A DNA stretch of 64,000 nt, from contig JARLJH010000012.1 in NCBI GenBank assembly GCA_031291305.1, forward strand, positions 62,001 through 126,000, read 5' to 3'. The DNA comes from Rhodoferax sp. Its GTDB lineage: Bacteria; Pseudomonadota; Gammaproteobacteria; Burkholderiales; Burkholderiaceae_C. The position numbers were made by a program, and so were the translations under genes. Shown one piece after another: positions 15,649 to 57,593 of this stretch. Under the pieces are notes generated by a model. That model did no database searches. It was not told where the DNA came from and was given only the letters and a program-made list of their open reading frames with translations. Within the stretch, counting starts at the first letter, position 1. Each line of letters starts with the position of its first letter.

Positions 15649-17466
15649 TCAAACCAAACCGTGCTTGCGCGCCCGAAAGGCCAGCTTGGCCCGCGTCGTG
15701 TCCAGCAGGCGCGCCGCTGCCGACAGGTTGCCTTTGCTGGCGGCAATGGCCTTGGCCAAGGTCTCTCGTTCGGTCTGCGCCAGAGATTGCGGGTTGATCG
15801 CGGGCTTGCCACTGACATGGCTACTGTCCTCCCCAACGGGGGGGACGCCACAGTCAGCCCGGTTCAAGGTGCCCGAGTTGCCTTGAAGTCGCAAGGTCAT
15901 GATGTCGCTGCTCAGCGTCTCGCCGCTGGTGAACAGGTGCTGCAGGTCAATCAAACCGTCGGCATCGGCCATGATCACCGCGCGCTCGATCAGGTTTTGC
16001 AGCTCGCGGATATTGCCGGGAAAGTCGTAGTTCAGCAGCGCCCGCACAGCGGCCTGGGTGAAACCACGGGTCTGTCCCCCGTGCTTGTGCCGGTAGTAGT
16101 TCAAAAAGTGGTTCATCAGCAAGGGAATGTCATCGCGCCGCTCGCGCAAAGGCGGCAAATGGATCGGAAACACATTGAGCCGAAAGAACAAGTCCTCGCG
16201 GAACTTGCCCTCTTGCACAGCCTGTCGCAAGGTTTCATTGGTAGCGGCCACCACCCGCACGTCCACCGCAATGCTCTGTGTGCCACCCACGCGTTCAACC
16301 TCGCCCTCTTGTAAGGCGCGCAGCAGCTTGCCCTGGGCGACAAAACTCAGCGTGCCAATCTCATCCAGAAACAAGGTGCCGCCGTTGGCCCGCTCGAAAC
16401 GGCCTGGGCGGGAGTGGTTGGCTCCGGTGTATGCACCGCGCTCCACGCCAAACAGTTCAGACTCGATCAAGGTATCGGGAATGGCAGCGCAGTTCACTGC
16501 GACGAAGGGCTGGTTTTTACGTGGACTAATTTTGTGCAACATGCTGGCAAATTTTTCCTTGCCAACGCCGGACTCGCCGGTAAAAAGTACGGTGGCCGTG
16601 GTCCGCGCCACCCGGTTCAACTGGTGGCAGGCGGCATTGAAGGCGGATGACGCCCCCACCATGGCACCGCCCGCGGCAGCTTCTGCAGTAGGCAATTCAG
16701 CCGCGTGTGAAGTGGTTTGTGCATAGGCGCCAGCGCCAACAAACTCACGCGCACTCAGGTAACGCATGTCCTCTGTGATGTCATCCCAGTTGTCCGCCGA
16801 CTTGCCAATCACCCGGCAATACGGGTCGCCCATGGAGCGGCACTGCACTTCCCGAAACACGATCAATCGGCCAAACAGCGTGCTGACATAGCCCGTGGCG
16901 TAACCCACCTGCATCCAGCAAGCCGGTGAGCCACCAATGCCGTAGGCGGCAATGTGTTCATCGTCCTCGCTGGAGTTGTGCCACAGAAACTCGCCTTCGT
17001 AAATGCCGCTGTCTGGGTCGTAGGAGGCATGCACCACTTCCACCTTGACCACGCCTTCCAGCGCATGCAGGCGCGTACCGGCAATCGCCGTGGCCGATGG
17101 GTCGGCGTCGGGCCACTGCTTGCGCACCAGTTGAGCATCACGCGCACCGCTGACATAACCGGCGCGCGTGAACAGACCGCGAGCCTGTTCGGTGCCCAGG
17201 CTGTCGATCATCTCACGCCGCATGGCGCCCAGGGCCTCGGTGTGCAGCAACACCATGCGCTGATCCTGTAGCCAGATGCGGCCATCACCAGGGGAGAAAA
17301 ACAGGCACTCGCTGATGTCACCCACTGTGGGGTGGGCATCGCCACCAATTTTTGCGCTGGCAAACCCGCCCATGGCGCTGGACACCGACTCAGCATCGAA
17401 CTTGCCCAAAGCTGCACCACTGGCACGGGCCACATCAGCCAAGGAAATACGGGGAAAACTCGACAT
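15649..17466 (-). CDS. Sigma-54-dependent activator of the XylR/DmpR type
   Basis: This protein has about 605 residues in the full XylR/DmpR order. An N-terminal XylR_N effector domain ([20 protein letters not shown]) is followed by a V4R domain ([20 protein letters not shown]; Cys-containing [11 protein letters not shown]) and an AAA+ domain with Walker A GESGVGKE and the sigma-54 contact loop GAYTGA. A Fis-type HTH ([24 protein letters not shown]) closes it. Such regulators bind an aromatic effector directly and activate -24/-12 promoters. It is divergent from the aldehyde dehydrogenase operon, whose promoter carries the matching elements. ATG 17466 is chosen; the frame extends to a weak TTG at 17478. 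Confidence 0.92.
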
Positions 17467-17525
17467 GAATTTGATCAAGGAATAAATGGAGGCTACACAT
17501 GAAATGCAGCGATTTCATCTGCAGA

Positions 17526-17566
17526 TCAAAACTTTGACGCTGATTGTGCGGATTGACATGGATCAA
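17526..17566 (+). promoter_or_regulatory. Candidate upstream activator sites for the sigma-54 activator
   Basis: Two short palindromes lie here: TCAAAACTTTGA (17526-17537) and TTGACATGGATCAA (17553-17566). They sit about 80-130 bp upstream of the -24/-12 promoter, the usual location for XylR/DmpR-type activator sites. Assignment rests on position and symmetry only. Confidence 0.4.
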
Positions 17567-17645
17567 CACAAGCTAGGGTATGTCCCTAATTCCCCTAGCG
17601 TAGAGACCCAAAAAACACCCCGCTTGGCATGGGTCTGCATCCAGT

Positions 17646-17662
17646 CTGGTACGCGCATTGCA
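17646..17662 (+). promoter_or_regulatory. Sigma-54 (-24/-12) promoter
   Basis: CTGGTACGCGCATTGCA matches the sigma-54 consensus TGGCACG-N4-TTGCA with one mismatch and the exact 10-bp spacing between GG and GC. It lies about 62 bp before the aldehyde dehydrogenase ATG at 17724 and faces away from the sigma-54 activator gene, which supports it strongly. Confidence 0.78.
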
Positions 17663-17723
17663 ATTCATTGGCATATCACACCGATGTGACGCACTGATCA
17701 AACCACTGAAAGGACCACAGCAA

Positions 17724-19178
17724 ATGGGCGCACCTGATACCACCGCATTCCTGAATTTTCCAATGTCATCGCACGCCACCCTGAGTGGCGGAACGCGTGA
17801 CGTGATCGAACCCGCCACCGGGCAGGTGCTGTCCACCGTGGGCATTGCCAACGCGGCCGACGTCGCCACCGCCACCCGCGCCGCAGCAGCCGCACAAAAG
17901 GCTTGGGTAGCTGTACCCCCGCGTGACAAGGCAGCCATCCTGCGCCGCGCCGGTGATCTGTTCCAGCTGCACTTTGACGAGCTGGCCTTGTATGTCACCC
18001 GCGAAGGCGGTGGCATTCTGCCCAAAGGCCAGCATGAAATCCGTGAGGCCATCACGATCTGCCATCTGGCATCCAGCCTGCCCATGCAGTCCCAAGGCCA
18101 TGTGCTGCCCAGCGTGCCTGGGCGCAGCAGCATTGCACGGCGTGTGCCACACGGCGTGGTGGGGGTGATCTCGCCGTTCAACTTTCCGCTGATCCTGACA
18201 CTTCGCGCGGTGGCTCCAGCCTTGGCTGCTGGCAACGCGGTAATCGTCAAACCCGACACCCGCACACCGGTATCTGGCGGCCTGATGATTGCTCGCATCT
18301 TTGCCGAAGCTGGCCTGCCCAAAGACCTGCTGCAGGTTTTGCCAGGTGATGCCGAGGCCGGTGAAGCGTTGGTGACCGACCCGCTGGTGCCGATGATTGC
18401 CTTCACCGGCTCCCCGGCTGTGGGGCGGCGCATTGGTGAACTGGCCGGACGGCATCTGAAAAAAGTCTCGCTGGAACTCGGCGGGGCCAACAATCTGATC
18501 ATCTTGGAAGATGCCGATCTGGATCTGGCCGCCAGCAATGCTGCCTGGGGCGCCTGGCTGCACCAAGGCCAGATTTGCATGGCCTCCAACCACATCTATG
18601 TGCACAGCAGCATCGCCGCCCAGCTGACACAGCGCCTGGTTGCCAAGGCCACGCACCTGCCGGTGGGCGACGGTGCCAGCGGCCAAGTGGCCCTGGGGCC
18701 GCTGATTGATGCCAAACAGCGTGACCGCGTGCACGCCATGGTGCAAGACAGCGTGAAGGCCGGGGCCAAGCTCGAAGCAGGCGGCGCGTATGACGGCCTG
18801 TTCTACAAGCCCACCGTGCTCTCTGGCGTGAAGCCCGGCATGCGTGTGTTTGACGAGGAAACGTTCGGCCCAGTGGCCAACATCATCACCTTCGACACCG
18901 ACGAAGAAGTCATTGCGCTGGCCAATAACAACACCGGCAGTCTGGCCTCGGCCATCATTTCCCCGGCCATTGGCCGCGCCATGGCGATGGGCCAGCAGCT
19001 CAAGTCCGGCATGGTGCACATCAACGACCAGACCGTCAACGACGACTGCGTCAACCCCTTTGGCGGCCCCGGCATCGCCGGCAACGGCACCAGCGTGGGC
19101 GGCCCTGCCGACCTGGAGGAATACACCCAGTGGCAATGGATCACCGTGAAAGACACGGCCCCGGCCTACCCCTTCTGA
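17724..19178 (+). CDS. NAD(P)-dependent aromatic aldehyde dehydrogenase (benzaldehyde/vanillin/coniferaldehyde type)
   Basis: This 484-residue ALDH has GVISPFNFPLILTLRAVAPA, the catalytic Glu region LELGGANNLI, the catalytic Cys in HQGQICMASNHIYV (about residue 290) and the C-terminal EEFGPV-like EETFGPVANI. It belongs to the benzaldehyde/vanillin-type branch. It is the first gene after the sigma-54 promoter. ATG 17724 is preceded by GAAAGGA at good spacing; an upstream in-frame extension is not needed, and MSSHATL at 17763 is an alternative. With the SDR downstream it would oxidise an aromatic alcohol to the acid in two steps. Confidence 0.9.
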   Translation: MGAPDTTAFLNFPMSSHATLSGGTRDVIEPATGQVLSTVGIANAADVATATRAAAAAQKAWVAVPPRDKAAILRRAGDLFQLHFDELALYVTREGGGILPKGQHEIREAITICHLASSLPMQSQGHVLPSVPGRSSIARRVPHGVVGVISPFNFPLILTLRAVAPALAAGNAVIVKPDTRTPVSGGLMIARIFAEAGLPKDLLQVLPGDAEAGEALVTDPLVPMIAFTGSPAVGRRIGELAGRHLKKVSLELGGANNLIILEDADLDLAASNAAWGAWLHQGQICMASNHIYVHSSIAAQLTQRLVAKATHLPVGDGASGQVALGPLIDAKQRDRVHAMVQDSVKAGAKLEAGGAYDGLFYKPTVLSGVKPGMRVFDEETFGPVANIITFDTDEEVIALANNNTGSLASAIISPAIGRAMAMGQQLKSGMVHINDQTVNDDCVNPFGGPGIAGNGTSVGGPADLEEYTQWQWITVKDTAPAYPF

Positions 19179-46376: not shown

Positions 46377-47792
46377 ATGCACGCCCTACGTCTCTGGTCT
46401 GTCCGTCATGCCCGTGGCCTGCGCCGGGTGTATGACCTGTTCTCGCGGTTGGCGCCGGTGGTGGCCCCGGTGGCTCGCGCCATTGGCGTGACCCGCACCG
46501 AGGCACTCTTGCGCCCGCTGGAGCGCAACGCCAAGGGCTTGCTGTTTGACTGTCGCATGTGCGGCCAGTGTGTGCTCTCGGCCACCGGCATGGCCTGCCC
46601 GATGAATTGCGCCAAGGAAATGCGCAACGGCCCCTGCGGCGGCGTGCGCGCCAATGGCCATTGCGAGGTCAAGCCCGACATGCGCTGCGTCTGGGTGGAA
46701 GCCACTGCCGGCACCAAACGCATCGCGCCCGACCACCTGGCCCACCCCACACCCTTGCTGCCCGCCATTGACCAGCGCAAACGCGGCAGCGCCAGCTGGA
46801 TTCAGGTGATCCATGGCAAGCCGAACCCGGCCTTTCAACCGCCCGTAGGTGAACGCATCACCCCCCAGGCACAGCAAGGCCCGCTGGAGCGCGCCTGCCG
46901 CTCGGGCCGTTTTGTCATCACCGTGGAAGTGGCCCCGCCGGACTCAGCCAACCCAGCCGACCTGCTGGCGCGTGCCGAAAAATTCAAGGGCCTGGTCGAT
47001 GCCATCAACATCACCGACGGCGCGGGTGGCAACTGCCACATGTCCAGCGTGGCGGCATCCGCCATCTTGACCACTCACGGCTTTGCGCCGGTCTACCAGG
47101 TGGCCTGCCGCGACCGCAACCGCATTGCGATTCAGGGCGACATTCTGGGGGCCAGCGCTCTGGGTGTGCAAAACATCTTGTGCCTGACGGGTGACGATGT
47201 CAGCCAGGGCGACCACCCGCAGGCCAAGCCGGTGTTTGACCTGGATGCCGTCTCGCTGCTGCACATTGCACGCGGCATGTGTGACCGGGGCGAATACGCC
47301 AGCGGCCGCAAGCTGCTCACTGCGCCCGACCTGTTCATTGGTGCCACCGCCAATCCTTTTGTGCCACCGTTTGGCGACCGCATTGCCAATCTGGAAAAGA
47401 AGATTGCCGCCGGTGCGCGTTTCATCCAGACCCAGTTTTGTTTTGATCTGCTCATGCTGGAAGACTTCATGCGCCTGGTGCGTGAGCGTGGCCTGCACCA
47501 ACGCGCCCACTTCATCGTCGGTGTCGGCACATTGGGCAGCGCCAAGGCCTTGGGCTGGATGGCGCAGCATGTGCCCGGCGTGCATGTGCCCCCTGCTTTG
47601 CTGGCGCGCATTGCCGCCGCACCGGATCAAAAAGCCGAAGCCAAGCAAGTGTGTATTGAAACCATCCAAGCCCTGGCACGCATTGAAGGCGTGGCCGGTG
47701 TGCATGTGATGGGCCACAAAAACGAGGACACCCTCGCCCAGATCATTTCCGAGAGCGGTTTGCGCGAGCAAACCCGTCTGCACTGCGAATGA
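46377..47792 (+). CDS. MetV-MetF fusion: methylene-tetrahydrofolate reductase with N-terminal Cys-rich domain
   Basis: This protein has 471 residues. Residues ~55-105 form a MetV/PF12225-type Cys-rich domain: C59, C62, C65 (CRMCGQC), C74, C78, C87 (NGPCGG), C96, C104. In acetogens MetV is a separate Fe-S or zinc subunit partnering MetF. Residues ~170-465 are a MetF TIM-barrel (FVITVEVAPPDSANPADLL, NITDGAGGNCHMSS, NILCLTGDDVSQGDHP, GARFIQTQFCFDLL). Placed first in a corrinoid methyltransferase cluster, it probably oxidises methyl-THF to methylene-THF, the reverse of the biosynthetic direction. The next gene follows after 26 bp. No strong RBS is visible at the ATG. Confidence 0.88.
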   Translation: MHALRLWSVRHARGLRRVYDLFSRLAPVVAPVARAIGVTRTEALLRPLERNAKGLLFDCRMCGQCVLSATGMACPMNCAKEMRNGPCGGVRANGHCEVKPDMRCVWVEATAGTKRIAPDHLAHPTPLLPAIDQRKRGSASWIQVIHGKPNPAFQPPVGERITPQAQQGPLERACRSGRFVITVEVAPPDSANPADLLARAEKFKGLVDAINITDGAGGNCHMSSVAASAILTTHGFAPVYQVACRDRNRIAIQGDILGASALGVQNILCLTGDDVSQGDHPQAKPVFDLDAVSLLHIARGMCDRGEYASGRKLLTAPDLFIGATANPFVPPFGDRIANLEKKIAAGARFIQTQFCFDLLMLEDFMRLVRERGLHQRAHFIVGVGTLGSAKALGWMAQHVPGVHVPPALLARIAAAPDQKAEAKQVCIETIQALARIEGVAGVHVMGHKNEDTLAQIISESGLREQTRLHCE

Positions 47793-47818
47793 CTTTTTTA
47801 ACAAAGAGGAGACCCCCA

Positions 47819-48481
47819 ATGAGCGACATGACCCCACAGGAACAACAGCTGGTCGAATGGCTGGCCGACATGAACGAGGACGACGCGCTGGCGCTGTCCA
47901 ACAAAATGCTGCTGGAAGAAGGCGCTGACCCGCTGCGCGTGCTCGAACTCTGTCGCACCGCCATGGACATCGTTGGCAAGCGTTTTGAGGAAGGCGAATA
48001 CTTCCTGCCCGAGTTGGTGCTGGCCGGTGAAATGCTCGACACCATCGGCAAAGTCGCCAAGCCGCTGATCAAGGCCGCGCCCGGTGAAGAGGTCAAAACA
48101 CACGGCAAGGTGCTGATCGGAACAGTGCATGGCGACCTGCACGACATCGGCAAGAACATCGTCACCTTCATGCTCGACATCAATGGCTTTGAGGTCAAAG
48201 ACATCGGCATTGACGTGCCGGTCAAGACCTTCATCAAAGAAATCAACGAGTACCAACCCGATGTGGTGGGTCTTTCAGGGTTTCTGACGCTGGCCTTTGA
48301 TTCCATGAAAGAAACCATTGCCGCTTTTGAGGCCGAAGGCATCCGTAACAAGTTCAAGATCATGATTGGCGGCGGCCAGATTGACGACACCGTGCGCGGT
48401 TACACCGGGGCCGATGCCTTCGGTGTCAACGCCGTTGAAGCCGTGCATCTGTGCAAGAACTGGATGGGGGTGGCAGCATGA
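47819..48481 (+). CDS. Corrinoid (B12-binding) methyl-carrier protein
   Basis: This 220-residue protein has an N-terminal helical cap (about 1-85, MtaC/MetH cap type: LVEWLADMNEDDALALSNKM) and a Rossmann-like B12 domain. The B12 domain carries the base-off His motif GDLHDIGKNIV (D106-x-H108-x-x-G111), VVGLSGFLT and IMIGGGQI. Such proteins carry the methyl group between methyltransferases I and II. RBS AAAGAGGAGA precedes the ATG. It overlaps the methyltransferase I gene by 4 bp, expected for tight stoichiometry. Confidence 0.93.
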   Translation: MSDMTPQEQQLVEWLADMNEDDALALSNKMLLEEGADPLRVLELCRTAMDIVGKRFEEGEYFLPELVLAGEMLDTIGKVAKPLIKAAPGEEVKTHGKVLIGTVHGDLHDIGKNIVTFMLDINGFEVKDIGIDVPVKTFIKEINEYQPDVVGLSGFLTLAFDSMKETIAAFEAEGIRNKFKIMIGGGQIDDTVRGYTGADAFGVNAVEAVHLCKNWMGVAA

Positions 48482-49782
48482 GCGCCGAGAACACCATGGC
48501 CGCCGACTCCACCATGATTGGGCCGTATGAACAAACGGCTGCCGCCAAGGCCGCCTATGACGCACGCTGGGAACGCATCCTGGCCTGCGTGCGCCTGGAG
48601 CAGCCTAAGCGCATGCCGGTGGGCTTTCAGAGCTTCTTCTTCCCGGCCACCTATGGCGGCATCACCTACAACGAGTTGATGCACGACTACGAGAAGGCCA
48701 AAAAGGTTTGCTACGACGTGGTCATGGAGTTTGAACCCGACGGCGTCTACCCCTTGCTGATGGGCACCAACCAGGGCCGCGCGTTGGAAAAGCTCGAATT
48801 CAAACAACTCCAGTGGCCCGGTCACGGCGTGGGCGACATGCAGCCCTACCAGTACCTGGACCGCGAGTACATGAGCGCCGACGAGTACGACGACTTCCTG
48901 TTCGACCCCACGGGCTTTTACATCCACAAATACCTGCCGCGCGTGGCCGGTGCTTTTGAAGGTTTTGACAAACTGCCGTCCTTCCCCGGCCTGCACTACT
49001 TCCGCCTGGTCAACGGCATTCGGTCCTTTGCCCTGCCCGAAGTGCGCGCCTCGTTTGACAAGATCGTCGCCGCTGCCGAAGAGGTCAACACCTTCTTTGG
49101 CCACCATATCGACTGGACGCAAAAGATCAACGCCGCCGGTTACCCGCTGTTCAACGGCATCAACGCCGTGTCGCCCTACGACTTCATCGCCGACTACTTC
49201 CGCGGTGCCACCGGCATGATGAAAGACCTGTACCGCCACAAAGACAAACTCAAGCAGGTGCTGGACAAGGCCGCGGTGTTCCTCACCAAGATGACCATCA
49301 CCAATGCCAAGATGTCGGGCAACCCCATTGTCTTCATCCCGATCCACTGGGCGCCGGATGCGTTCATGAGCCCGAAGCAGTTTGAAGAATTCTGGTGGCC
49401 GCCGTTTCGCAAAATGATGATGGGCATGATCGAGGCCGACCTGATCCCCATGCCGATGTGGGAGTCCGACTGCACCAAGCGGCTGGAAGTCATCAAAGAC
49501 ATTCCGGCCGGAAAATGCATCTACTGGTTTGAGCGCACCGACATGGTCAAGGCCTTTGAAGTGCTGGGCGACCGCGTGGCCTTGCGCGGCAACCTGTCAC
49601 CGTCGATGCTGACCACCGGCACACCTGCTGACGTGGACGCTGCCGTCAAGCACTTGGTGGACAACGTCTGGAACAAGGGCGGCAATTTGATTCTGGACGG
49701 CGCCTTCGGCATCCCGGACGAAACGCCCACGCCCAATGTGCGCGCCATGTTCGACGCGGCCCGCAAGTACGCCGGCGGTTAA
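48478..49782 (+). CDS. UroD-family corrinoid methyltransferase I (MtvB/CmuA-like)
   Basis: This 434-residue protein of the uroporphyrinogen-decarboxylase superfamily is longer than HemE (~350) and lies outside a haem context. It shows RMPVGFQSFFFPATYGGITY, the YGGI-type entry, FWWPPFRKMMMGMIEADLIP, PMWESDCTKRLEVIKDIPAG (likely metal-ligand region with E and C) and ALRGNLSPSMLTTGTPADVD. UroD-type methyltransferases transfer methyl groups from methoxyaromatics, methanol-derived carriers or chloromethane to a corrinoid. The substrate here is unknown; methoxylated aromatics are a reasonable guess. In CmuA this domain is fused to the corrinoid domain; here they are separate, overlapping genes. Confidence 0.85.
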   Translation: MSAENTMAADSTMIGPYEQTAAAKAAYDARWERILACVRLEQPKRMPVGFQSFFFPATYGGITYNELMHDYEKAKKVCYDVVMEFEPDGVYPLLMGTNQGRALEKLEFKQLQWPGHGVGDMQPYQYLDREYMSADEYDDFLFDPTGFYIHKYLPRVAGAFEGFDKLPSFPGLHYFRLVNGIRSFALPEVRASFDKIVAAAEEVNTFFGHHIDWTQKINAAGYPLFNGINAVSPYDFIADYFRGATGMMKDLYRHKDKLKQVLDKAAVFLTKMTITNAKMSGNPIVFIPIHWAPDAFMSPKQFEEFWWPPFRKMMMGMIEADLIPMPMWESDCTKRLEVIKDIPAGKCIYWFERTDMVKAFEVLGDRVALRGNLSPSMLTTGTPADVDAAVKHLVDNVWNKGGNLILDGAFGIPDETPTPNVRAMFDAARKYAGG

Positions 49783-49821
49783 TACGCAGGCTTAACCACG
49801 CTCACCCACCAGCTCATCACC

Positions 49822-50514
49822 ATGCCCAGCCGCACCCACATCAATCTGCTGCGCAACGTCGCCGCCATGCCTTTAAGTGGCAGGCAGTCGCCCTTGCGCG
49901 AACGCATGCGCCGTGACGCGCTGGCCCTGGCTGAACGTGAGGGCCTGGGCGAGGTGGCCTTGAGCTACTGCATCGTGCCCTTGGAGCAGCCCGTGGGCGA
50001 AACGCTGCGGCTGGCGGGTGAAACCCTGCACGCGCCCTGGCTGCTGCCCGCCAGCGGCCAGCTCACCGCGCTGGCCTGTGCCTCGTGCACGGTCGGCCCG
50101 GCACTGGAGGCGCGGGTCACCGCCTTGTTCACCGAAAAACGTGCCTCGATTGCACTGGCGCTGGATGAAGTGGGCAACGAGCTGCTGTTTGCCGCCTCAC
50201 GCCTGGTGCAAGACCGTATGCTGGCCGATGCCCAACGCCAGGGCTTGAGCTTGAGTGGTGAATTGCGCCCCGGCGATCCTGGCTTGGCCATTGACGCGCA
50301 CGCCACCGTGTTGCGCCTGGCCCAGGCTGAGTCCATTGGTGTTGTCGCCCGATATGGCCATACGCTGTACCCGCTCAAGTCCTTCTCGGTGGTGATGGGC
50401 GCTGGCATCAACTTGCCCAGAGCCAACTGGTCACGCTGTGACAGCTGCCCCACCCGCGCCAAATGCAAACTGGCCCATCGCGAACAGGCCGAGCGCGAGC
50501 TGGCATCAGCTTGA
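49822..50514 (+). CDS. MetH-activation-domain-like protein with C-terminal Cys motif
   Basis: This 230-residue protein resembles the vitamin-B12-dependent methionine synthase activation domain group found beside corrinoid methyltransferases: LACASCTVGPALEARVTALF, ALALDEVGNELLFAASRLVQ, HATVLRLAQAESIGVVA. It ends with NWSRCDSCPTRAKCKLAH, a Cx2Cx5C-type set that may bind a cluster or zinc. Probable role: keep the corrinoid in the active state or help its reductive activation. It is 40 bp after the methyltransferase I gene and 27 bp before the activator gene. Confidence 0.78.
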   Translation: MPSRTHINLLRNVAAMPLSGRQSPLRERMRRDALALAEREGLGEVALSYCIVPLEQPVGETLRLAGETLHAPWLLPASGQLTALACASCTVGPALEARVTALFTEKRASIALALDEVGNELLFAASRLVQDRMLADAQRQGLSLSGELRPGDPGLAIDAHATVLRLAQAESIGVVARYGHTLYPLKSFSVVMGAGINLPRANWSRCDSCPTRAKCKLAHREQAERELASA

Positions 50515-50541
50515 TCGACTCGCCGCCATTCATTGCCCACC

Positions 50542-52383
50542 ATGCCCCACACCCGCCCCGCCACCCACGCCGTAAGCCACACGCTTCACTTCCCCGAGCT
50601 GGATCGCTCCATCACCGCGCAAGCCGACGAGAGCGTCTTCCAGAGCGCCCGCCGCCAGGGCCTGCGCCTGGTGGGCGCTTGCGGAGGCCGTGGCACCTGC
50701 GGCACTTGCGTGGTGCGGGTGACAGAGGGCCACGTGGATGCCACACCCGCCAGCGCCATCAGTGAACCGGCGGCCATCGGCCCCAACCCCACCCACAGCC
50801 GCAAAAAGTGGCTGCGCGCCTGCCAAATCCACGCCCACAGCGACTGCAGCATCGAAGTCGCCCCGCGCTCCCTGGCCCCGGTGGTGCGGGCCGAGGCAGA
50901 CACTGCGGGCGTGCCCGAAATGCTGGCGCTCGATGCCAGCGTGCGCAGCCATGACATCACCGTGCCCGCAGCGACCTTGGCCGACAACCTCAGCGATGCC
51001 GACCGCGTGCTGCGGGCTCTGGGTGCATCCAACCTCACGCTGGATTTGAAGGCCGCCCAAACCCTGTCGCCGCTGCTGCGCAAACAATCGAACGACGAAC
51101 ACTGGTCACTGCGCGTGCGCCAGCGCGGCCAGGAGCTGATCGACTTTGCCCCCAGCGCCAGCCGCACCCTGGGCCTGGCGGTGGATCTGGGCACGACCAA
51201 CGCCGCAGCCTTTCTGGTCGACCTGGAAACCGGCGCACGCCTGGCCAGCTTGGGCATCGAGAACCCGCAAACCGCCTGGGGCGCGGACCTGATCAGCCGC
51301 ATCAACAACGCGGTGCGCAGCGACAGCACCCGTGAAGAGTTGCGCGCCGCCGCCGTGACCGCCATCAACGCCCTGGCGCACGACCTGTGCCACGCCGTGG
51401 GGGCCAGCCGCGAGCAGATTGTGGATGCCGTGGTCTGTGGCAACACCGCCATGCACCACCTGCTGCTGGGCCTGCCTGTCGTGCAATTAGGCCGTGCACC
51501 CTTTGTAGCTACTGCGCGGGCAGCTATGGATTTGAAAGCACGTGAACTGGGCCTGAGCATTGCGCCAGGGGCCTGGGTACACATCGTCGCCAATGTGGGC
51601 GGCTTTGTCGGTGGCGACCACGTCACCGCGCTGCTGGCTACCCAAGACCGTTGGCAAGGCTGCCGCACCGCCTTGGTGATGGACATTGGCACCAACACCG
51701 AAATCTCACTCGTCCACGGCGGGCGCATCTTGTCGGCCTCTTGCCCGTCTGGTCCGGCGCTGGAGGGCGGTCACATCTCTTGCGGCATGCGGGCGGCAGA
51801 AGGCGCGATTGAGCGCGTCAGCCTGGAGGCTGGCCGCATCACCGTGCGCACCATTGGCAACCTGGCCCCAGTGGGCCTGTGTGGCTCAGGCGTGCTGGAT
51901 GCGCTGGCGGTGCTGCGCAGCGCCAACATCGTCAACGCCCGGGGCCGCCTGGCTGCCGACCATCCCGACGTGCAAGAACTCAACGGCCAGCGTGTCGCCG
52001 TGCTGGCCCCCGGCGTGCACTTTTCGCAAGACGACGTGCGTGCCGTGCAACTGGCCAAAGCCGCCATCCGCACTGGCGTGGACATGCTGCTGCAACACCA
52101 GGGCTTGCATGAGCAGGACATTGACCGCTTCATCATCGCCGGAGCCTTTGGGGCCTACATCGACATCAGCAGCGGCATGGCGATTGGCCTGTTCCCCAAG
52201 CTGCCGATGGAACGCTTTGAACAGGTGGGCAACGCCGCCGGCCTGGGTGTGCGCCAGATGCTGGCCAGCCAAGCTGCCCGAGCCCGCGCCACCGAACTGG
52301 CCAGCACCTGTGAATACGTGGAGCTATCCACCCGCAGCGAATTTCAAAAAGTTTTTTTACACCATATCGGATTCCCGTCCTAA
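50542..52383 (+). CDS. RACE protein: ATP-dependent reductive activator of corrinoid enzymes
   Basis: This 613-residue protein has an N-terminal 2Fe-2S ferredoxin domain with C47, C53, C56 (ACGGRGTCGTC) and C94. A linker and middle domain follow, then a DUF4445/ASKHA ATPase: LGLAVDLGTTNAAAFLVDLE, VVCGNTAMHHLLLG, VMDIGTNTEISLVHGG, CGMRAAEGAIE, GLCGSGVLDAL and FIIAGAFGAYIDI. RACE proteins (MtvD, RamQ-like) reduce Co(II) corrinoid back to Co(I) with ATP. Its presence implies the corrinoid carrier works at low potential and is prone to oxidation, notable in an apparently aerobic host. Start ATG 50542; an in-frame TTG lies at 50533. Confidence 0.93.
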   Translation: MPHTRPATHAVSHTLHFPELDRSITAQADESVFQSARRQGLRLVGACGGRGTCGTCVVRVTEGHVDATPASAISEPAAIGPNPTHSRKKWLRACQIHAHSDCSIEVAPRSLAPVVRAEADTAGVPEMLALDASVRSHDITVPAATLADNLSDADRVLRALGASNLTLDLKAAQTLSPLLRKQSNDEHWSLRVRQRGQELIDFAPSASRTLGLAVDLGTTNAAAFLVDLETGARLASLGIENPQTAWGADLISRINNAVRSDSTREELRAAAVTAINALAHDLCHAVGASREQIVDAVVCGNTAMHHLLLGLPVVQLGRAPFVATARAAMDLKARELGLSIAPGAWVHIVANVGGFVGGDHVTALLATQDRWQGCRTALVMDIGTNTEISLVHGGRILSASCPSGPALEGGHISCGMRAAEGAIERVSLEAGRITVRTIGNLAPVGLCGSGVLDALAVLRSANIVNARGRLAADHPDVQELNGQRVAVLAPGVHFSQDDVRAVQLAKAAIRTGVDMLLQHQGLHEQDIDRFIIAGAFGAYIDISSGMAIGLFPKLPMERFEQVGNAAGLGVRQMLASQAARARATELASTCEYVELSTRSEFQKVFLHHIGFPS

Positions 52384-52400
52384 CCCCAGAGGAGACAAGC

Positions 52401-53306
52401 ATGAACATGTCAGAACCCAACAACTTTGCCATCAAGATCATTGGCGAGCGCATCAACCCCGGCTTCAAAAGCACCCGCGCGCTGTTTGACAACGAAGACC
52501 TGCCCGGCATCCAGGCCCTGGCCGTGCGCCAGGCCGAGGCCGGTGCGACTTACCAAAACGTCAACATCGGTGCCCGTGCGTTGACCGACCCGCAGTTCAT
52601 GACCCGCGTGATCCAGGCCATTCAAGAGGTGGTGAGCACCCCGCTGTCGTTCGACTTCCCCAGCAAAAAAGTGCAAGAGATTTGCCTGGCTGCTTATGAC
52701 ATTGACAAGGCCGGTGGCGAGCTGCCCATCGTCAACTCCATCACCGAACACCGCTGGGATTTGATGGAGCTGTATGGCCCCTACAAGTTCAAGGTGATCC
52801 TGATGGCCTCGGAACGGCTGGAAGAAGTGGACGGGGCCATGGTGGCCAAGGGCAACAAGACCACGCAAGAAATCTACAGCACCGCCAAACGCGCCGCGCT
52901 GCGCCTGAAGAACGACTACGGCATGCCGCTGGACCACATCTTCATCGACATGTCGGTCTCGGCCATCATTGCCGACACCGAAGGCCTGAACCGCAGCACA
53001 GTGGAAGCCATCCGCCTGATTGGCGCCGACCCCGAGCTGAAAGGCGTGCACATGATGGGTGGCCTCTCGAACATCGGCCAGCAATTGCCCCCCAAAGCCG
53101 CCGACGGCTCTGACCTGAAACACTGCCTGGAAAACGCCTTCTTGACCCTGAACGTGCCACACGGTTTTGACTACGTGCTGGGCACACCCTGGCGCGGTTA
53201 CGAGCCCCTGGCTGAAGACCACCACGTGCTCACCACCTACCGCAACTTTCTGGAGCAAACCGGCAGCAATGCCCTACGGGCGGTACGCAAGTTTTACAAG
53301 GCCTAA
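52401..53306 (+). CDS. Pterin-binding methyltransferase II (methylcorrinoid:tetrahydrofolate, MtvA/CmuB-like)
   Basis: This 301-residue DHPS-like TIM-barrel protein has IIGERINPGFKSTRALFDNE at the N-terminus, AGATYQNVNIGARAL, SFDFPSKKVQEICL, PIVNSITEHRWDLM and IFIDMSVSAIIADTEGLNRS, followed by GVHMMGGLSNIGQQLP. This matches methyl-THF:corrinoid methyltransferases (AcsE/MtvA/CmuB). It would take the methyl group from the corrinoid protein to tetrahydrofolate, giving methyl-THF for the MetV-MetF enzyme. RBS AGAGGAGACAAGC precedes the ATG; 17 bp after the activator gene. Confidence 0.92.
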   Translation: MNMSEPNNFAIKIIGERINPGFKSTRALFDNEDLPGIQALAVRQAEAGATYQNVNIGARALTDPQFMTRVIQAIQEVVSTPLSFDFPSKKVQEICLAAYDIDKAGGELPIVNSITEHRWDLMELYGPYKFKVILMASERLEEVDGAMVAKGNKTTQEIYSTAKRAALRLKNDYGMPLDHIFIDMSVSAIIADTEGLNRSTVEAIRLIGADPELKGVHMMGGLSNIGQQLPPKAADGSDLKHCLENAFLTLNVPHGFDYVLGTPWRGYEPLAEDHHVLTTYRNFLEQTGSNALRAVRKFYKA

Positions 53307-53312
53307 AGCGTT

Positions 53313-54509
53313 ATGAGCACACCCGCACAGGCCACACTGGCCCTGGTGGTGGACGGCTGGTTTGATGGCGAACAGCGCCACAGCGGCCCCACCACCTTCA
53401 CCGTCATCAACGGCCAGATCAGCGCCATCGACGCTGGTGACCACAGCGCGGCGCTGGCGGTACGCGGCCTGAGCGTGGAGCGCGGTGCCTTCCTAATCCC
53501 CGGCTTGGTCGATGCCCATGTACACCTGTTTCTGGACGGTGCACCCACCGAGCAAGCGGTGCGCTCGGCCCACCTCAAACAGCCGCTGGAGCAACTGGTA
53601 GAAGCCGCCCGCGCCAGCGCCCGCCAGTCGCTCAGCCTTGGCATCACCCAGGTGCGTGATGCGGGTGACCGCCATGGCATCAACAACCGCGTGCGTGCCG
53701 AGGCCGAATCGCCCAACAGCAACCTGGCCAAAGTGCGCTCCACCGGCCTAGGCATCAAACGCGCCAAGCGATACGGCGCCTTCATGGCCACCGACGTGGA
53801 CGATGCTCAAAGCATCCGCGACTCGATCCAGAGCCTGGCCGTAGCCAACGACGAAATCAAACTCATCCTGACCGGCATCATCGACTTTGATGCCGGGGCC
53901 GTCACCGACGAGCCCCAGTTCACGTTGGACGAAGCCCGCGTGGTGGTGGACGCAGCGCGAACCCATGGCCGCAACACCATGGTGCATTGCAGCGGCCCCA
54001 AGGGGCTGGCCATTGCGGCGGCGGCAGGTGTCGGCTCCATCGAACACGGCTTCTTCATGAGCCGCGACACCCTCGCGCTGATGGCACAGAACCAGGTGGC
54101 CTGGACACCCACCTTTTGCCCGGTGCACTTTCAGTGGGCGCAGCCCCAGGCCGTGGGCTGGAAGCCTGAGACGGTAGGCAACCTGCGTCGCATTCTGGAC
54201 CAGCACGCGCAGCACCTGTTGATGGCGCAAGAGCTGGGCGTGCCCCTACTGCTGGGCACCGATGCCGGCAGCATGGGTGTGGAGCACGGCCACGCCGTGT
54301 TTGACGAGATCGACCGTTACCTGGAGGCTGGCCTGTCCTTGCAAGACACCTTGCGTGCCGCTACATCAGCCAACCGCCGCCATTTCGGACAAACCCACAC
54401 CACTCTGCGCCCCGGCGCAGCCTGGGATGCCGTGCTGCTGGCGCGCGACCCGTTTGAGCACATTCAGGCGCTGCGCCAGGCGGTGAAGGTGTGGCGCGGT
54501 GGTGATTGA
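53313..54509 (+). CDS. Amidohydrolase (imidazolonepropionase/hydantoinase-like)
   Basis: This 398-residue TIM-barrel metal hydrolase has IPGLVDAHVHLFLDGAPTEQ (HxH), GITQVRDAGDRHG, MVHCSGPKGLAIAA, GSIEHGFFMSRDTL and LLGTDAGSMGVEHGHAVFDE (Asp ligand). It begins 6 bp after the methyltransferase II gene and is the last gene of the cluster. It could release the methylated substrate from an amide or lactam precursor, or process the demethylated product. If the methyl donor is an N-methyl compound rather than a methoxyaromatic, this gene would be the clue. Confidence 0.82.
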   Translation: MSTPAQATLALVVDGWFDGEQRHSGPTTFTVINGQISAIDAGDHSAALAVRGLSVERGAFLIPGLVDAHVHLFLDGAPTEQAVRSAHLKQPLEQLVEAARASARQSLSLGITQVRDAGDRHGINNRVRAEAESPNSNLAKVRSTGLGIKRAKRYGAFMATDVDDAQSIRDSIQSLAVANDEIKLILTGIIDFDAGAVTDEPQFTLDEARVVVDAARTHGRNTMVHCSGPKGLAIAAAAGVGSIEHGFFMSRDTLALMAQNQVAWTPTFCPVHFQWAQPQAVGWKPETVGNLRRILDQHAQHLLMAQELGVPLLLGTDAGSMGVEHGHAVFDEIDRYLEAGLSLQDTLRAATSANRRHFGQTHTTLRPGAAWDAVLLARDPFEHIQALRQAVKVWRGGD

Positions 54510-54661
54510 CGGGGATTTTGAAGGCGTGAAGAAAAATGCCTCTTGGATCACCCCGGTGCCCGGTAGCGATGGCGCAGGGATTAGCTCAATGAGCTGGTAT
54601 GCGCCTACGACGCAAGGGCATTGAGGGTGGGTGGGTGTCGCGGGGAACTAGCGAATTTATG

Positions 54662-54777: not shown

Positions 54778-56418
54778 TTACGTTCCAGTTTCTTCCAGTG
54801 AAACAATTAGTCGGTTCAATCTCTCCAACAGATCGTCATAGGTCACGATCTTCACGACTCTGTTTGAGTTGATGTTGAAAAGCGTTTCTTTTTGTTCATC
54901 AGAAAGTTGATTGGATCGGCCAATAACCACCAATCCCTCGGCGGTGTATTCTCCCTTCAGCCAATCCGGCATAGTCTCCGCGTTACGCCGAATCTGGACG
55001 ATCCAGTCTTCGATTTGTTGCGATGCATGCGACACCTTATCGACGAGCCGGTTGTGCCTTTTGAATATCCGGTCATCATCTCTTTCCAGTTCAATAAGCA
55101 GCACTCGTTTGTCAGACTGCCTGTACCTGAGAACAAGGTCTGCCCTGAATGCCCCTACGCGTACCTCGCTGTGCACCTGTGCAACGTGAGCATCAATCAA
55201 CATCGGATGCCTTTTCAGAAAGGCATGTAGATCGGCCTCTTTCTTTTTTCGCCTTTCCAGCAAATGACAGAACTCAAAATAGATTTTCGATAGCAATTGC
55301 ACCTGAGATGGCGCAGGTGGCGCAAGGTACTGCATGCGCTGCTCCAACATCTCCATTTCATCCAGTGCTATCTCTTTGATACGACTAGAGCGAATTTCGA
55401 CCATGATGGGTGGTATTAACTCTTCTCCTCCGCGCTCCAGGATATCAACGCCAGGGGCATGAAACTTCCCAAGAATGACAGCAGGAACGCGCTTGAAGCC
55501 CAAAGACTTGTAGGAAAGATAAGCCGAATAATCGTCGTCCATTATTAAGCGGCCACCGCGCTGATAAAGCAGCATCTCTGTGCACGCCTGAGTGCCATCT
55601 ATGTGAGAACTGCGTAGCCGCCGAACCTCCTCCAAGGGATATGCCAGGGCATGCTCCATGTCGTTCGGTACTACCGCATCCAGAGGAACAATCACACGCG
55701 TGCACTCCAGCTTTCCTTGATAAGCGAGCGCACAAAGCCTGATCAAAGTCTCATTTTCTTTCGGTGGACGGTTTGGCCCCAAGTCTGCGGTATCAATATC
55801 CTCGACGGGAATCATGCGATAGCGAAAATTGTGAAGGGCCACGAGTACCCTCAGCATCAAGAACAATTTAGGAATTTCTTGAATCTGATCGCGCGGAACC
55901 ACAATCCAGTCATCTACGGTACAAATTAACGCGAAAGGCTCTGGCTGAGAACGCGCGGCCCTGAATTCAGCACGTGCGACTTGCTTTAGCAGGTTGCTTC
56001 GTGTCATGAGCGTCACAGAATAAACTAGTCCGCCCCCTTGCAGCTCTTCACGGGCGATGTGAATGCCTCGATGGTCGTTATCCCAGAACAGTGAGGCAAA
56101 CGTATGACTACTTAGTGGTTGATGCTCCAAGCGATCAATTTTTTGGAAACACTCTTCCAAGCTGGGTAAATCTGTCTCTTCAAGCAAATGGTCTGCGCGA
56201 GTGGTCAGAAGGCCGTAATAGAACTGTGCGAGAGGACGATTATGTTTGTAGAGCTCTCGCAACGCCGATCCGACTTTTGATCGGTCTTCGCATCCCTCAT
56301 TAAGATTTTCTCTCACTAGCTTTTGCAGCGTATTGAGCATTGGAAATTCTGAAGACACTAATTTTTCCCCTTTGATATTTTGATGGACGGTGATTGGCTT
56401 TAGCCTTAATTTCTTCAA
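54778..56418 (-). CDS. Shedu-like (DUF4263/SduA) nuclease, putative anti-phage protein
   Basis: This protein has about 546 residues. The C-terminal ~150 residues match the Shedu/DUF4263 PD-(D/E)XK-like domain. It begins LHAFLKRHPMLIDAHVAQVH, then RADLVLRYRQSDKRVLLIEL (catalytic D...ExE/K strand), HNRLVDKVSHASQQIEDWI and AEGLVVIGRSNQLSDEQKET. Shedu proteins protect against phages through nuclease activity. The N-terminal ~380 residues are not recognisable and would be the sensor part. The frame starts at a TTG (56418); ATG 56340 is an alternative. It is 44 bp downstream of the DUF3800 gene on the same strand. Lower GC than neighbours. Confidence 0.8.
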   Translation of the reverse strand: MKKLRLKPITVHQNIKGEKLVSSEFPMLNTLQKLVRENLNEGCEDRSKVGSALRELYKHNRPLAQFYYGLLTTRADHLLEETDLPSLEECFQKIDRLEHQPLSSHTFASLFWDNDHRGIHIAREELQGGGLVYSVTLMTRSNLLKQVARAEFRAARSQPEPFALICTVDDWIVVPRDQIQEIPKLFLMLRVLVALHNFRYRMIPVEDIDTADLGPNRPPKENETLIRLCALAYQGKLECTRVIVPLDAVVPNDMEHALAYPLEEVRRLRSSHIDGTQACTEMLLYQRGGRLIMDDDYSAYLSYKSLGFKRVPAVILGKFHAPGVDILERGGEELIPPIMVEIRSSRIKEIALDEMEMLEQRMQYLAPPAPSQVQLLSKIYFEFCHLLERRKKKEADLHAFLKRHPMLIDAHVAQVHSEVRVGAFRADLVLRYRQSDKRVLLIELERDDDRIFKRHNRLVDKVSHASQQIEDWIVQIRRNAETMPDWLKGEYTAEGLVVIGRSNQLSDEQKETLFNINSNRVVKIVTYDDLLERLNRLIVSLEETGT

Positions 56419-56462
56419 ACGAGTGCAGCGAACGACATATTTTTATTTTCTGACATCCTGAT

Positions 56463-57593
56463 TCACAGCAAATAGGGCATCGCTGGTAGGCCGTGCAAAA
56501 AGGTTTCATCCTTCCAAGCGCTATCCATTGCAGTCGTGCGGTGAATGAATGCATTGCTGACTTCGTCTGAATGATCTATTAACCGGCGTAGCAGTTCAAA
56601 ATTGGAAATTTGAATTGCATTCCACGCTTTTTTCCGCGTCAATAGTTCCGGCAGTGAGTGCTCTTCCACGAAGCTTTGGTATTTCCCGAGAAAACCCGTT
56701 AGTACGTCCGCAATTTGGATGCCTGGCTCGGCTTTCGAATCAGAAAAGCAAAAGTCCACATGGCGAGAACCATCCATAAACTTCGTGTCCTTCAAACTCT
56801 TTTCGATTTCGGTCTCACGGTCGAAGATGTGAGTGGAGTTCTTGAAAAGCATGATTGGCCTCGTATAGAAGCCTTGAAAGCTGTCGATCAGCATGCCCTC
56901 TTCCTCATGTACCAAAAAGGCGAGTTCAGACAATGATGCGGCCTTTTTGACAATGGCATCTAGCATAAGTGCGGGGAGATTGTTGTTCTTTGGGTTGCGA
57001 TCTGCAATAAACTCGTTGACGGAGCCCATGAAAGCTGCCACCCCGCCTGGCTGGATGTCTGGATAGCGGTGTAGTTTCATCAGCGCCAAGAACTTCGGCT
57101 CATCGAGGTTTGCCAGCCGATAAAGTTCGTTTTTTATGTACTGATGATGCGGGGAATACTCCCTGAATTTATCCTCGGCCAAGATGGAGTCAATGATGTC
57201 GACAATTGACCAGTGGATGATGTTGACGCTGGAGTAATGGATCGCAATGCCATGGTCGACTAGCCAAGACAAAAAGGTCCCTAACTTTTTCGAGGTCAAA
57301 ACCTTTTCAAAGTCACCTTTGGCGACATGGCCAAATTTGATTTCAGAAGCATTTCTCTGCATTCCAAGCTTGCCTCTCAAAGCAGCGATGTCGGGCAGGG
57401 ACTGCCCCTCCGCAAGAACGATTCCGCCCAATACAAAGTTATTGTGCTCAGGGACGTTCGTGCCTTCATCCGTCAAGTAGAACTTGCGAATGTTGTTGGT
57501 CTCGTCGTAATAAAACGTGAATTTGTCGTTGACCCGCCGAAGCTGGAAGGCATTCACCATCATTTCTCGCATTTCGTTCACGTCAATTTCCAT
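56463..57593 (-). CDS. DUF3800 protein
   Basis: This 376-residue protein has the DUF3800 hallmarks: FTFYYDETNNIRKFYL near residue 25 (acidic DE pair), NNFVLGGIVLAEGQ, and the C-terminal VDFCFSDSKAEPGIQIADVL (S-D-S...Q-x-A-D), suggesting an RNase-H-like or related metal-dependent active site. DUF3800 proteins are frequent in defence and mobile islands. Upstream of, and codirectional with, the Shedu-like gene, it probably forms a two-gene defence operon. GGGA precedes the ATG weakly. The 220 bp to the next gene contain nothing evident. Confidence 0.82.
   Translation of the reverse strand: MEIDVNEMREMMVNAFQLRRVNDKFTFYYDETNNIRKFYLTDEGTNVPEHNNFVLGGIVLAEGQSLPDIAALRGKLGMQRNASEIKFGHVAKGDFEKVLTSKKLGTFLSWLVDHGIAIHYSSVNIIHWSIVDIIDSILAEDKFREYSPHHQYIKNELYRLANLDEPKFLALMKLHRYPDIQPGGVAAFMGSVNEFIADRNPKNNNLPALMLDAIVKKAASLSELAFLVHEEEGMLIDSFQGFYTRPIMLFKNSTHIFDRETEIEKSLKDTKFMDGSRHVDFCFSDSKAEPGIQIADVLTGFLGKYQSFVEEHSLPELLTRKKAWNAIQISNFELLRRLIDHSDEVSNAFIHRTTAMDSAWKDETFLHGLPAMPYLL

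What the first reader, a model, noticed from the sequence alone, without database searches (positions are those of the whole stretch)
46377..54509. Complete corrinoid-dependent methyl-transfer system in an apparently aerobic betaproteobacterium
Seven codirectional, closely spaced genes encode every part of a methyl-stripping route. They are a MetV-MetF fusion, a corrinoid carrier (DLHDIG), UroD-type methyltransferase I, MetH-activation-like protein, RACE activator, pterin methyltransferase II and amidohydrolase. Acetogen O-demethylases (MtvABCD) have the same parts, and chloromethane degraders have CmuA/CmuB/MetF2. Here the parts are unfused and combined with an oxidising folate branch, next to box-pathway and hydroxycinnamyl-alcohol-type genes. 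The substrate is not evident. Inference: methyl groups (perhaps from methoxyaromatics such as vanillate or syringate) go to THF and are oxidised for energy.
Basis: partly seen in the sequence, partly recalled or inferred. Interest (0 to 1): 0.9.

Follow-up and report, generated by a model that had tools for sequence, protein, structure and literature searches.

The report
Proteobacterial B12-dependent methoxy-aromatic demethylase operon
A seven-gene operon, conserved but rare among environmental Proteobacteria, looks like a vitamin-B12 machine that strips methyl groups off lignin-type methoxylated aromatic acids without oxygen and hands them to folate, a chemistry usually associated with acetogens and methanogens.

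Summary
Seven codirectional genes (46377-54509), gaps -4 to 39 bases, encode MetV-MetF, a corrinoid protein, a UroD-superfamily methyltransferase, a MetH-activation-fold protein, RACo, a pterin-binding methyltransferase and an amidohydrolase. Of 33 related loci, ten keep all seven in this order; the amidohydrolase follows the pterin methyltransferase in 18 of 19 testable loci.

VanA-type oxygenase genes lie within 16 kb of the methyltransferase gene in 10 of 29 copies (expected 0.35). LigA is in 26 of 26 methyltransferase-bearing genomes against 30 of 198 others in the order (inflated by kinship), and the window's contig carries LigAB, LigK and PobA. The closest solved protein is CdmB (chloromethane), which its authors place with aromatic O-demethylases.

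Corrections: box genes are 35-45 kb away, not adjacent; the genome has narG, so 'aerobic' is unproven; folD, the next gene in three relatives, is only a remnant here. Substrate and activity are inferred, not shown. Ten library searches listed no such cluster in Proteobacteria, but a possibly relevant Sulfuritalea paper was not held. New variant of a known kind.

The parts
46377..47792 (+). MetV-MetF fusion (DUF5981 + methylene-THF reductase), predicted to oxidise methyl-THF
   Evidence: Pfam DUF5981 84.5 bits and MTHFR 119.8 bits; the only MetV-domain match in this genome at E <= 0.001
47819..48481 (+). corrinoid carrier protein, DLHDIG motif
   Evidence: Pfam B12-binding and B12-binding_2; motif; below the cut-offs of the MtgC, MtbC and MtaC models
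48478..49782 (+). UroD-superfamily methyltransferase I, predicted O-demethylase
   Evidence: Pfam URO-D; profile of 34 homologues: CdmB 8.7e-54, next best HemE 1.9e-8
49822..50514 (+). MetH-activation-domain-like protein with three C-terminal cysteines (C-x2-C-x5-C) invariant in 24 of 24 aligned
   Evidence: alignment, model, Foldseek 1j6r
50533..52383 (+). RACo-type ATP-dependent reductive activator of the corrinoid protein
   Evidence: Pfam RACo domains and Fer2; best NCBIfam AcsV 364.9 bits, below its cut-off of 800
52401..53306 (+). pterin-binding methyltransferase II (methyl-corrinoid to THF)
   Evidence: Pfam Pterin_bind; PRK07535 98.2 bits, below its cut-off of 259
53313..54509 (+). amidohydrolase of unknown role, a core part of the block; H69, H71, K183, H225, H245, D317 kept in 18 of 18 aligned
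   Evidence: Pfam; follows the MT-II gene in 18 of 19 testable loci; residues
54508..54620 (+). remnant of the 3' end of folD, a gene found after the amidohydrolase in L005, L007 and L027
   Evidence: tblastn E 5.9e-12 (its alignment begins at 54334, inside the amidohydrolase gene, where it is weak); 58 bases at 86-90% identity to folD copies of L005

Best explanation
A corrinoid-dependent aryl O-demethylase for methoxylated aromatic acids, vanillate first choice (methoxyaromatic about 0.74, vanillate itself about 0.45). Proposed mechanism, all inferred: Co(I) on the corrinoid protein, placed by the UroD protein, attacks the aryl methyl ether and leaves protocatechuate or another phenol; the pterin protein moves the methyl to THF; MetV-MetF and FolD oxidise it, and formate can be released by the genomic PurU. 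RACo and the MetH-like protein return Co(II) to Co(I). The phenol goes to PobA and/or LigAB. The system works beside, or instead of, the O2-using VanAB.
For: All parts of a methyl-transfer route in one operon, conserved across Beta- and Alphaproteobacteria. Ten of 29 VanA_C genes lie within 16 kb of a methyltransferase gene; two of them (L006, L020) were compared with solved structures and are closest to dicamba O-demethylase, and those of L006 and L007 are 72-73% identical to the VanA-type protein of this genome. LigA in 26 of 26 methyltransferase-bearing genomes, and in G010 too, against 30 of 198 others of the order. LigAB near the block in L010, L012, L017, L018; PobA in L014, L017, L018. 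Own contig: LigA, LigK and PobA over NCBIfam equivalog cut-offs. Closest solved protein CdmB, which its authors place with MtvB, OdmB, VdmB and MtoB. PurU present in this genome.
Against: No activity data. The closest solved relative dehalogenates chloromethane and rejects methoxylated aromatics (abstract). The genomes compared are no random sample and are related, so the LigA contrast is inflated. Eight of 26 genomes have no VanA_C match at all. LigAB is about 81 kb from the block in the window and only 4 of 51 LigA copies are within 16 kb of a methyltransferase gene. Ring cleavage by LigAB needs O2 (recalled), so an O2-free demethylase is not obviously needed there. The role of the amidohydrolase is unexplained, and G010, which has a 46%-identical methyltransferase, shows no amidohydrolase match at E <= 1e-40. 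All seven proteins fall below the curated cut-offs of every NCBIfam family they match.
Confidence: 0.74

Rival explanations
1. A haloalkane (chloromethane) dehalogenase system like CdmBCA: the corrinoid protein takes the methyl of CH3Cl and passes it to THF.
For: The closest solved structure by sequence is CdmB, E 9.1e-38 for the single protein and 8.7e-54 for the profile.
Against: It does not explain the VanA-type oxygenases near 10 of 29 copies, nor LigAB and PobA near the block in some relatives. CdmB's authors found homologues mainly in anaerobic Bacillota and Asgardarchaeota and say CdmB's close kin demethylate aromatics. No MtvB-type O-demethylase appeared among the solved-structure hits, so CdmB may be nearest only by default.
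Confidence: 0.1
2. A demethylase for another methyl donor (methyl ester, quaternary N-methyl or S-methyl compound) that happens to sit in aromatic-catabolism regions.
For: The substrate of a UroD-type methyltransferase cannot be read from sequence; one to four copies per genome suggest varied substrates.
Against: Known betaine systems use MttB-type MT-I (recalled; no such domain in the seven genes). The corrinoid protein is far below the MtgC and MtbC cut-offs. The two nearby oxygenases tested are relatives of an O-demethylase.
Confidence: 0.12
3. A housekeeping corrinoid system, such as methionine synthesis or cobalamin repair, not a catabolic one.
For: A MetH-activation-like protein and MetF are present.
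Against: Only 1 of 199 other genomes sampled in the order has the methyltransferase at E <= 1e-10 and none the amidohydrolase at E <= 1e-40; no homocysteine-binding domain is among the Pfam hits.
Confidence: 0.04

Closest known systems
Acetogen and Desulfitobacterium O-demethylases (MtvABCD, OdmABCD, VdmABCD; subunit roles recalled)
   Same: Same four functional parts: UroD-type MT-I, corrinoid protein, pterin-type MT-II to THF, RACo-type activator.
CdmBCA, chloromethane dehalogenase of Acetobacterium dehalogenans (PMC13222342; abstract, sections 8 and 9, passages)
   Same: Closest solved UroD-type MT-I; unfused MT-I, corrinoid protein and MT-II; THF acceptor.
   Different: A cdmBCA cluster in an anaerobe, haloalkane substrate; no MetVF, MetH-like or amidohydrolase gene is mentioned in the parts I read.
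CmuA/CmuB chloromethane system of Methylobacterium
   Same: UroD-type methyltransferase and THF as acceptor in Proteobacteria (recalled).
   Different: CmuA is a fusion of methyltransferase and corrinoid domain (recalled); here they are separate genes and the MtaA/CmuA model scores 44.8 bits against a cut-off of 235.4.
LigM/DesA THF-dependent O-demethylases of sphingomonads (PMC8091115, passages)
   Same: O-demethylation of vanillate and syringate with THF, feeding protocatechuate or gallate cleavage.
   Different: LigM and DesA are single, corrinoid-free enzymes of the GcvT type (recalled); no such domain is found in the seven genes.
Type 1 mlp gene clusters (PMC10418091, passages)
   Same: UroD-type methyltransferase homologues, corrinoid protein and Ram/RACE activator in one cluster.
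   Different: Homologues of coenzyme M methyltransferases, several per cluster, no THF methyltransferase in the clusters described, found exclusively in anaerobes, assigned to methyl-S/Se.

Membership tests
Corrinoid-dependent aryl O-demethylase (Mtv/Odm/Vdm type) | MT-I, corrinoid protein, MT-II and activator encoded together | tested here: met
Corrinoid-dependent aryl O-demethylase (Mtv/Odm/Vdm type) | MT-I groups with MtvB, OdmB, VdmB, MtoB within the UroD superfamily | tested here: inconclusive
Corrinoid-dependent aryl O-demethylase (Mtv/Odm/Vdm type) | Demethylates methoxylated aromatics | not testable with these tools
   Only context:
Corrinoid-dependent aryl O-demethylase (Mtv/Odm/Vdm type) | MT-II methylates THF | tested here: inconclusive
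   Pterin_bind domain; best NCBIfam PRK07535 98.2 bits against a cut-off of 259
Cdm chloromethane system | CdmB-like MT-I with corrinoid protein and MT-II | tested here: met
   shared with O-demethylases, so not diagnostic
Cdm chloromethane system | Haloalkane activity | not testable with these tools
   none
Cmu chloromethane system | MT-I within the MtaA/CmuA family cut-off (TIGR01463) | tested here: not met
   44.8 bits against 235.4
Cmu chloromethane system | Methyltransferase fused to the corrinoid domain (feature recalled) | tested here: not met
   Separate ORFs 47819-48481 and 48478-49782
Uroporphyrinogen decarboxylase (HemE) | Above the HemE cut-off | tested here: not met
   39.6 bits against 302.95; a separate URO-D protein of 429 bits lies at G000:C58
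MtaA/MtbA thiol methyltransferases | HxC zinc motif (motif recalled) | tested here: not met
   No HxC in 33 of 34 aligned proteins, the window's included; L034 has one HDC
MetH activation domain | Activation-domain fold | tested here: met
   (predicted structure); by sequence only weak
MetH activation domain | AdoMet-dependent reductive methylation | not testable with these tools
   none

The most novel reading that the evidence does not exclude
The amidohydrolase is a new folate C1 enzyme (methenyl-THF cyclohydrolase or formyl-THF hydrolase of the amidohydrolase superfamily) that finishes methyl oxidation, so the operon is a self-contained methoxyl-to-formate module with which O2-respiring and nitrate-respiring Proteobacteria run acetogen-type O-demethylation ahead of oxygen-dependent ring cleavage at low O2.
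Probability: 0.15. Interest if true: 0.85.

Novelty: new variant of a known kind. Interest (0 to 1): 0.62.

Why it matters
Aryl-methoxyl groups are among the commonest C1 units released from lignin (recalled). In Proteobacteria their removal is best known through O2-dependent VanAB (recalled) and corrinoid-free LigM/DesA (PMC8091115, passages). A corrinoid route would conserve the methyl as methyl-THF, cost no O2 and release no formaldehyde. It would make O-demethylation under nitrate or low oxygen testable at the gene level, and might offer a lignin-upgrading module outside the acetogens.

Tried and rejected
HemE and MtaA/CmuA membership were rejected on curated cut-offs. My idea that the amidohydrolase is needed as the formyl-THF hydrolase was weakened: PurU is over the cut-off in 22 of 26 genomes, this one included. 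An HdrA-like electron carrier for MetVF, suggested by L007 and L024, was not general: at 70% identity or more in 3 of 26 genomes (the query's own among them); this genome has only a 37% relative with a stop inside. No NosZ match in this genome. The Foldseek search of the UroD model showed HemE and an MtaA-type methyltransferase among its 50 listed rows but not CdmB; that library ends in April 2026 and may not hold it. One promoter-like site was found against 1.8 expected in shuffles. A plasmid search gave one distant Sporomusa hit, not followed. Ten paper searches listed no paper on such a cluster in Proteobacteria; I judged by titles and the start of abstracts, and five listings were capped (20 of 39, 16 of 19, 15 of 755, 12 of 3,273, 10 of 192).

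Limits of the counts. Tallies over 200 order genomes include this genome itself. The Fisher test used 25 of 25 against 30 of 199; the strict background is 30 of 198, of which 27 are over the family cut-off. The distance test used 40 methyltransferase places (39 of the 45 rows, plus this genome); the six rows dropped were G010, not part of the VanA and LigA searches over handles, and five weaker matches (G222 C79, C101 and C111; G218 C105:73094; G217 C94). It assumes uniform placement. My simple gene caller mis-calls antisense ORFs in GC-rich DNA, so synteny is taken from tblastn. Protein alignments left out copies with unclear starts, an inner stop or a contig edge: 33 of 35 relatives kept for the UroD protein, 17 of 18 for the amidohydrolase, 23 of 25 for the MetH-like protein. 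The 18 of 19 for the amidohydrolase counts loci; in L027 the first of two tandem copies has no amidohydrolase, so by copies it is 18 of 20.
Full report
Observation. The seven ORFs are present, codirectional and nearly contiguous (gaps 26, -4, 39, 18, 17 and 6 bases). Pfam confirms MetV+MetF, a two-domain corrinoid protein, URO-D, RACo with a 2Fe-2S domain, a pterin-binding protein and an amidohydrolase. The fourth protein has no Pfam or NCBIfam hit at E <= 0.001, but its AlphaFold2 model (mean pLDDT 89.4) matches the MetH activation domain TM0269 best, and all 19 Foldseek hits with E <= 0.001 are methionine synthase entries. The corrinoid protein carries DLHDIG.

The methyltransferase. It is not HemE (39.6 bits against 302.95) and not MtaA/CmuA (44.8 against 235.4). 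A profile of 34 homologues finds CdmB of Acetobacterium at 8.7e-54, then HemE at 1.9e-8. The CdmB paper (PMC13222342; abstract, sections 8 and 9 and passages read; [quoted passage not shown] So the branch fits a demethylase, but the substrate cannot be read from the sequence.

Conservation. One scan of genome contigs gave 32 loci, all proteobacterial MAGs by title; with L004, 33 loci were compared by tblastn. Ten (L005, L006, L007, L011, L014, L015, L017, L018, L019, L025) hold all seven genes in the same order and strand. L008, L009 and L012 begin inside or at the corrinoid gene and hold the other six; L010 and L013 run from MetVF to the contig end. L016 holds the corrinoid, UroD and MetH-like genes up to the contig end but has no MetVF upstream. 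L024, L027 and L029 have MetVF after the amidohydrolase (37%, 71% and 39% identical). L031, L033, L035, L026 and L004 hold parts without MetVF in the sequence held. Nine (L020, L021, L022, L023, L028, L030, L032, L034, L036) show only the methyltransferase gene, some of them because the contig or the gene is cut. The amidohydrolase directly follows the MT-II gene in 18 of 19 loci where sequence continues (miss: L026; L013 and L035 end at the contig edge); counting the first tandem copy of L027, which lacks it, 18 of 20. It is therefore part of the system, though acetogen systems are not known to have it (recalled). In the order sample, 1 of 199 other genomes (G010) has the methyltransferase at E <= 1e-10 and 0 of 199 the amidohydrolase at E <= 1e-40, G010 included among the misses. 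A MetV domain is found in 22 of 26 methyltransferase-bearing genomes. The genomes hold 1-4 methyltransferase matches. In a tree of 34 rows the window belongs to a 16-row group, one row per locus, made of the window and L005-L019, while further copies from two of the same genomes (L020; L021 and L022) fall outside it, as expected if copies serve different substrates; 10 of 31 inner branches are drawn open and five end branches are long.

Substrate from context. (a) VanA_C (PF19112) occurs 29 times in 18 of 26 genomes and not at all in 8; 10 copies, in 9 genomes, lie within 16 kb of a methyltransferase gene, where 0.35 are expected under uniform placement. In 5 of the 13 genomes with a single VanA_C copy, that copy is the nearby one (G201, G208, G212, G213, G222). 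Two nearby oxygenases, from L006 and L020, are closest among solved proteins to dicamba O-demethylase; those of L006 and L007 are 72-73% identical to the VanA-type protein of this genome, while the others are 32-45% identical to it. The own VanA-type gene lies on another contig beside a reductase-type gene (VanB is my label). (b) LigA (PF07746) is in 26 of 26 methyltransferase-bearing genomes and in G010, against 30 of 198 other genomes of the order; kinship and sampling inflate this contrast, and not all of the 26 belong to the order. Four of 51 LigA copies lie within 16 kb of a methyltransferase gene (expected 0.61). LigAB is near the block in L010, L012, L017 and L018 (the L018 pair only 37-42% identical to that of L017), PobA in L014, L017 and L018. 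(c) The contig of the window (130,815 bases) carries, upstream of the window, two LigA copies, LigA and LigK over equivalog cut-offs, PobA over its cut-off and a benzoate-CoA ligase family protein. A BoxR-like protein (shikimate kinase + HTH) and LigJ-like and BoxD-like proteins have fitting Pfam domains; those three names are mine. An acyl-CoA synthetase of the PRK12582 kind is below its cut-off (722.8 against 777). The LigA copies are about 81 and 109 kb from the block, so this is a catabolic region, not one operon.

Lifestyle. narG is over the cut-off in 16 of 26 genomes, this one included; NosZ (TIGR04244) is over the cut-off in 8 of 26, with three more at 380-395 bits, and has no match in this one. 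Nitrate respiration is thus possible and 'aerobic' unproven. A veratric-acid labelling study of groundwater (PMC10602745, passages) saw Sulfuritalea among labelled taxa in anoxic water where nitrate fell, though its authors also suggest that it may depend on other bacteria; a Sulfuritalea MAG carries the full block (L018). This is suggestive only.

Mechanism. Shown by sequence: presence, order and conservation of the parts. Inferred: cob(I) attack on the aryl methyl ether, transfer to THF, oxidation by MetVF and FolD, release of formate by PurU (present), reactivation by RACo and perhaps by AdoMet through the MetH-like protein. In the window, folD, found after the amidohydrolase in L005, L007 and L027, is reduced to a 3' remnant, so FolD would have to come from elsewhere in the genome; that was not searched. 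The amidohydrolase keeps H69, H71, K183, H225, H245 and D317 in 18 of 18 sequences, the usual metal-site set (recalled), so it is probably active; its nearest solved kin are chains named amidohydrolase, imidazolonepropionase, Xaa-Pro dipeptidase and, further off, ochratoxinase. Its substrate is open.

Known or new. Corrinoid O-demethylases are established in acetogens and archaea (recalled, and PMC13222342), and THF-linked O-demethylation feeding protocatechuate in sphingomonads (PMC8091115, passages). None of ten literature searches listed a proteobacterial corrinoid O-demethylase cluster (five listings capped). A survey of a permafrost mire reports corrinoid methyltransferase genes, some assigned to methoxylated compounds, in 19 bacterial phyla, and in the passages I read names Proteobacteria for expressed MttB-type genes (PMC10805028); it may include relatives of this system. 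The paper most likely to hold an earlier mention (Sperfeld et al. 2018) was not available. Verdict: new variant of a known kind.

Noticed in passing
window 54508-54620: Remnant of the 3' end of folD directly after the amidohydrolase gene; the relative L005 has a folD with both Pfam domains there plus a second folD fragment downstream.
   Followed up: yes
window 54778-57593, - strand: A Shedu-type (SduA C-terminal) protein and a DUF3800 protein in locally low-GC DNA (0.46-0.52) right after the folD remnant: a possible defence insertion next to the operon.
   Followed up: partly
window 15649-19178; L006 17248-20761: A XylR_N-type sigma-54 activator next to an aldehyde dehydrogenase occurs in the window and, as homologues, just downstream of the block in L006.
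   Followed up: partly
window 9947-11443 and 1-723: Two members of one BoxB-like family (PaaA_PaaC, below its cut-off); the copy at 9947 is on the opposite strand, near an Amidohydro_2 gene (11771-12634) whose relatives lie near the methyltransferase gene in L009, L017, L018 and L022.
   Followed up: no
L007 16845-21269, L024 about 17597: A long HdrA-like flavin/FeS fusion (1475 aa in L007) follows the block; at 70% identity or more in 3 of 26 genomes.
   Followed up: partly
L027 3815-16885; L035 2747-5323: Tandem duplications: two block copies in L027 and two adjacent methyltransferase genes in L035.
   Followed up: no
L020 186-1172, L021 6489-7475: A 329-aa protein without a Pfam hit beside a VanA-type oxygenase, an ABC substrate-binding protein and a lone methyltransferase copy.
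   Followed up: no
G218:C105:73094-73861: A decayed methyltransferase copy with six stop codons, 45% identical.
   Followed up: no
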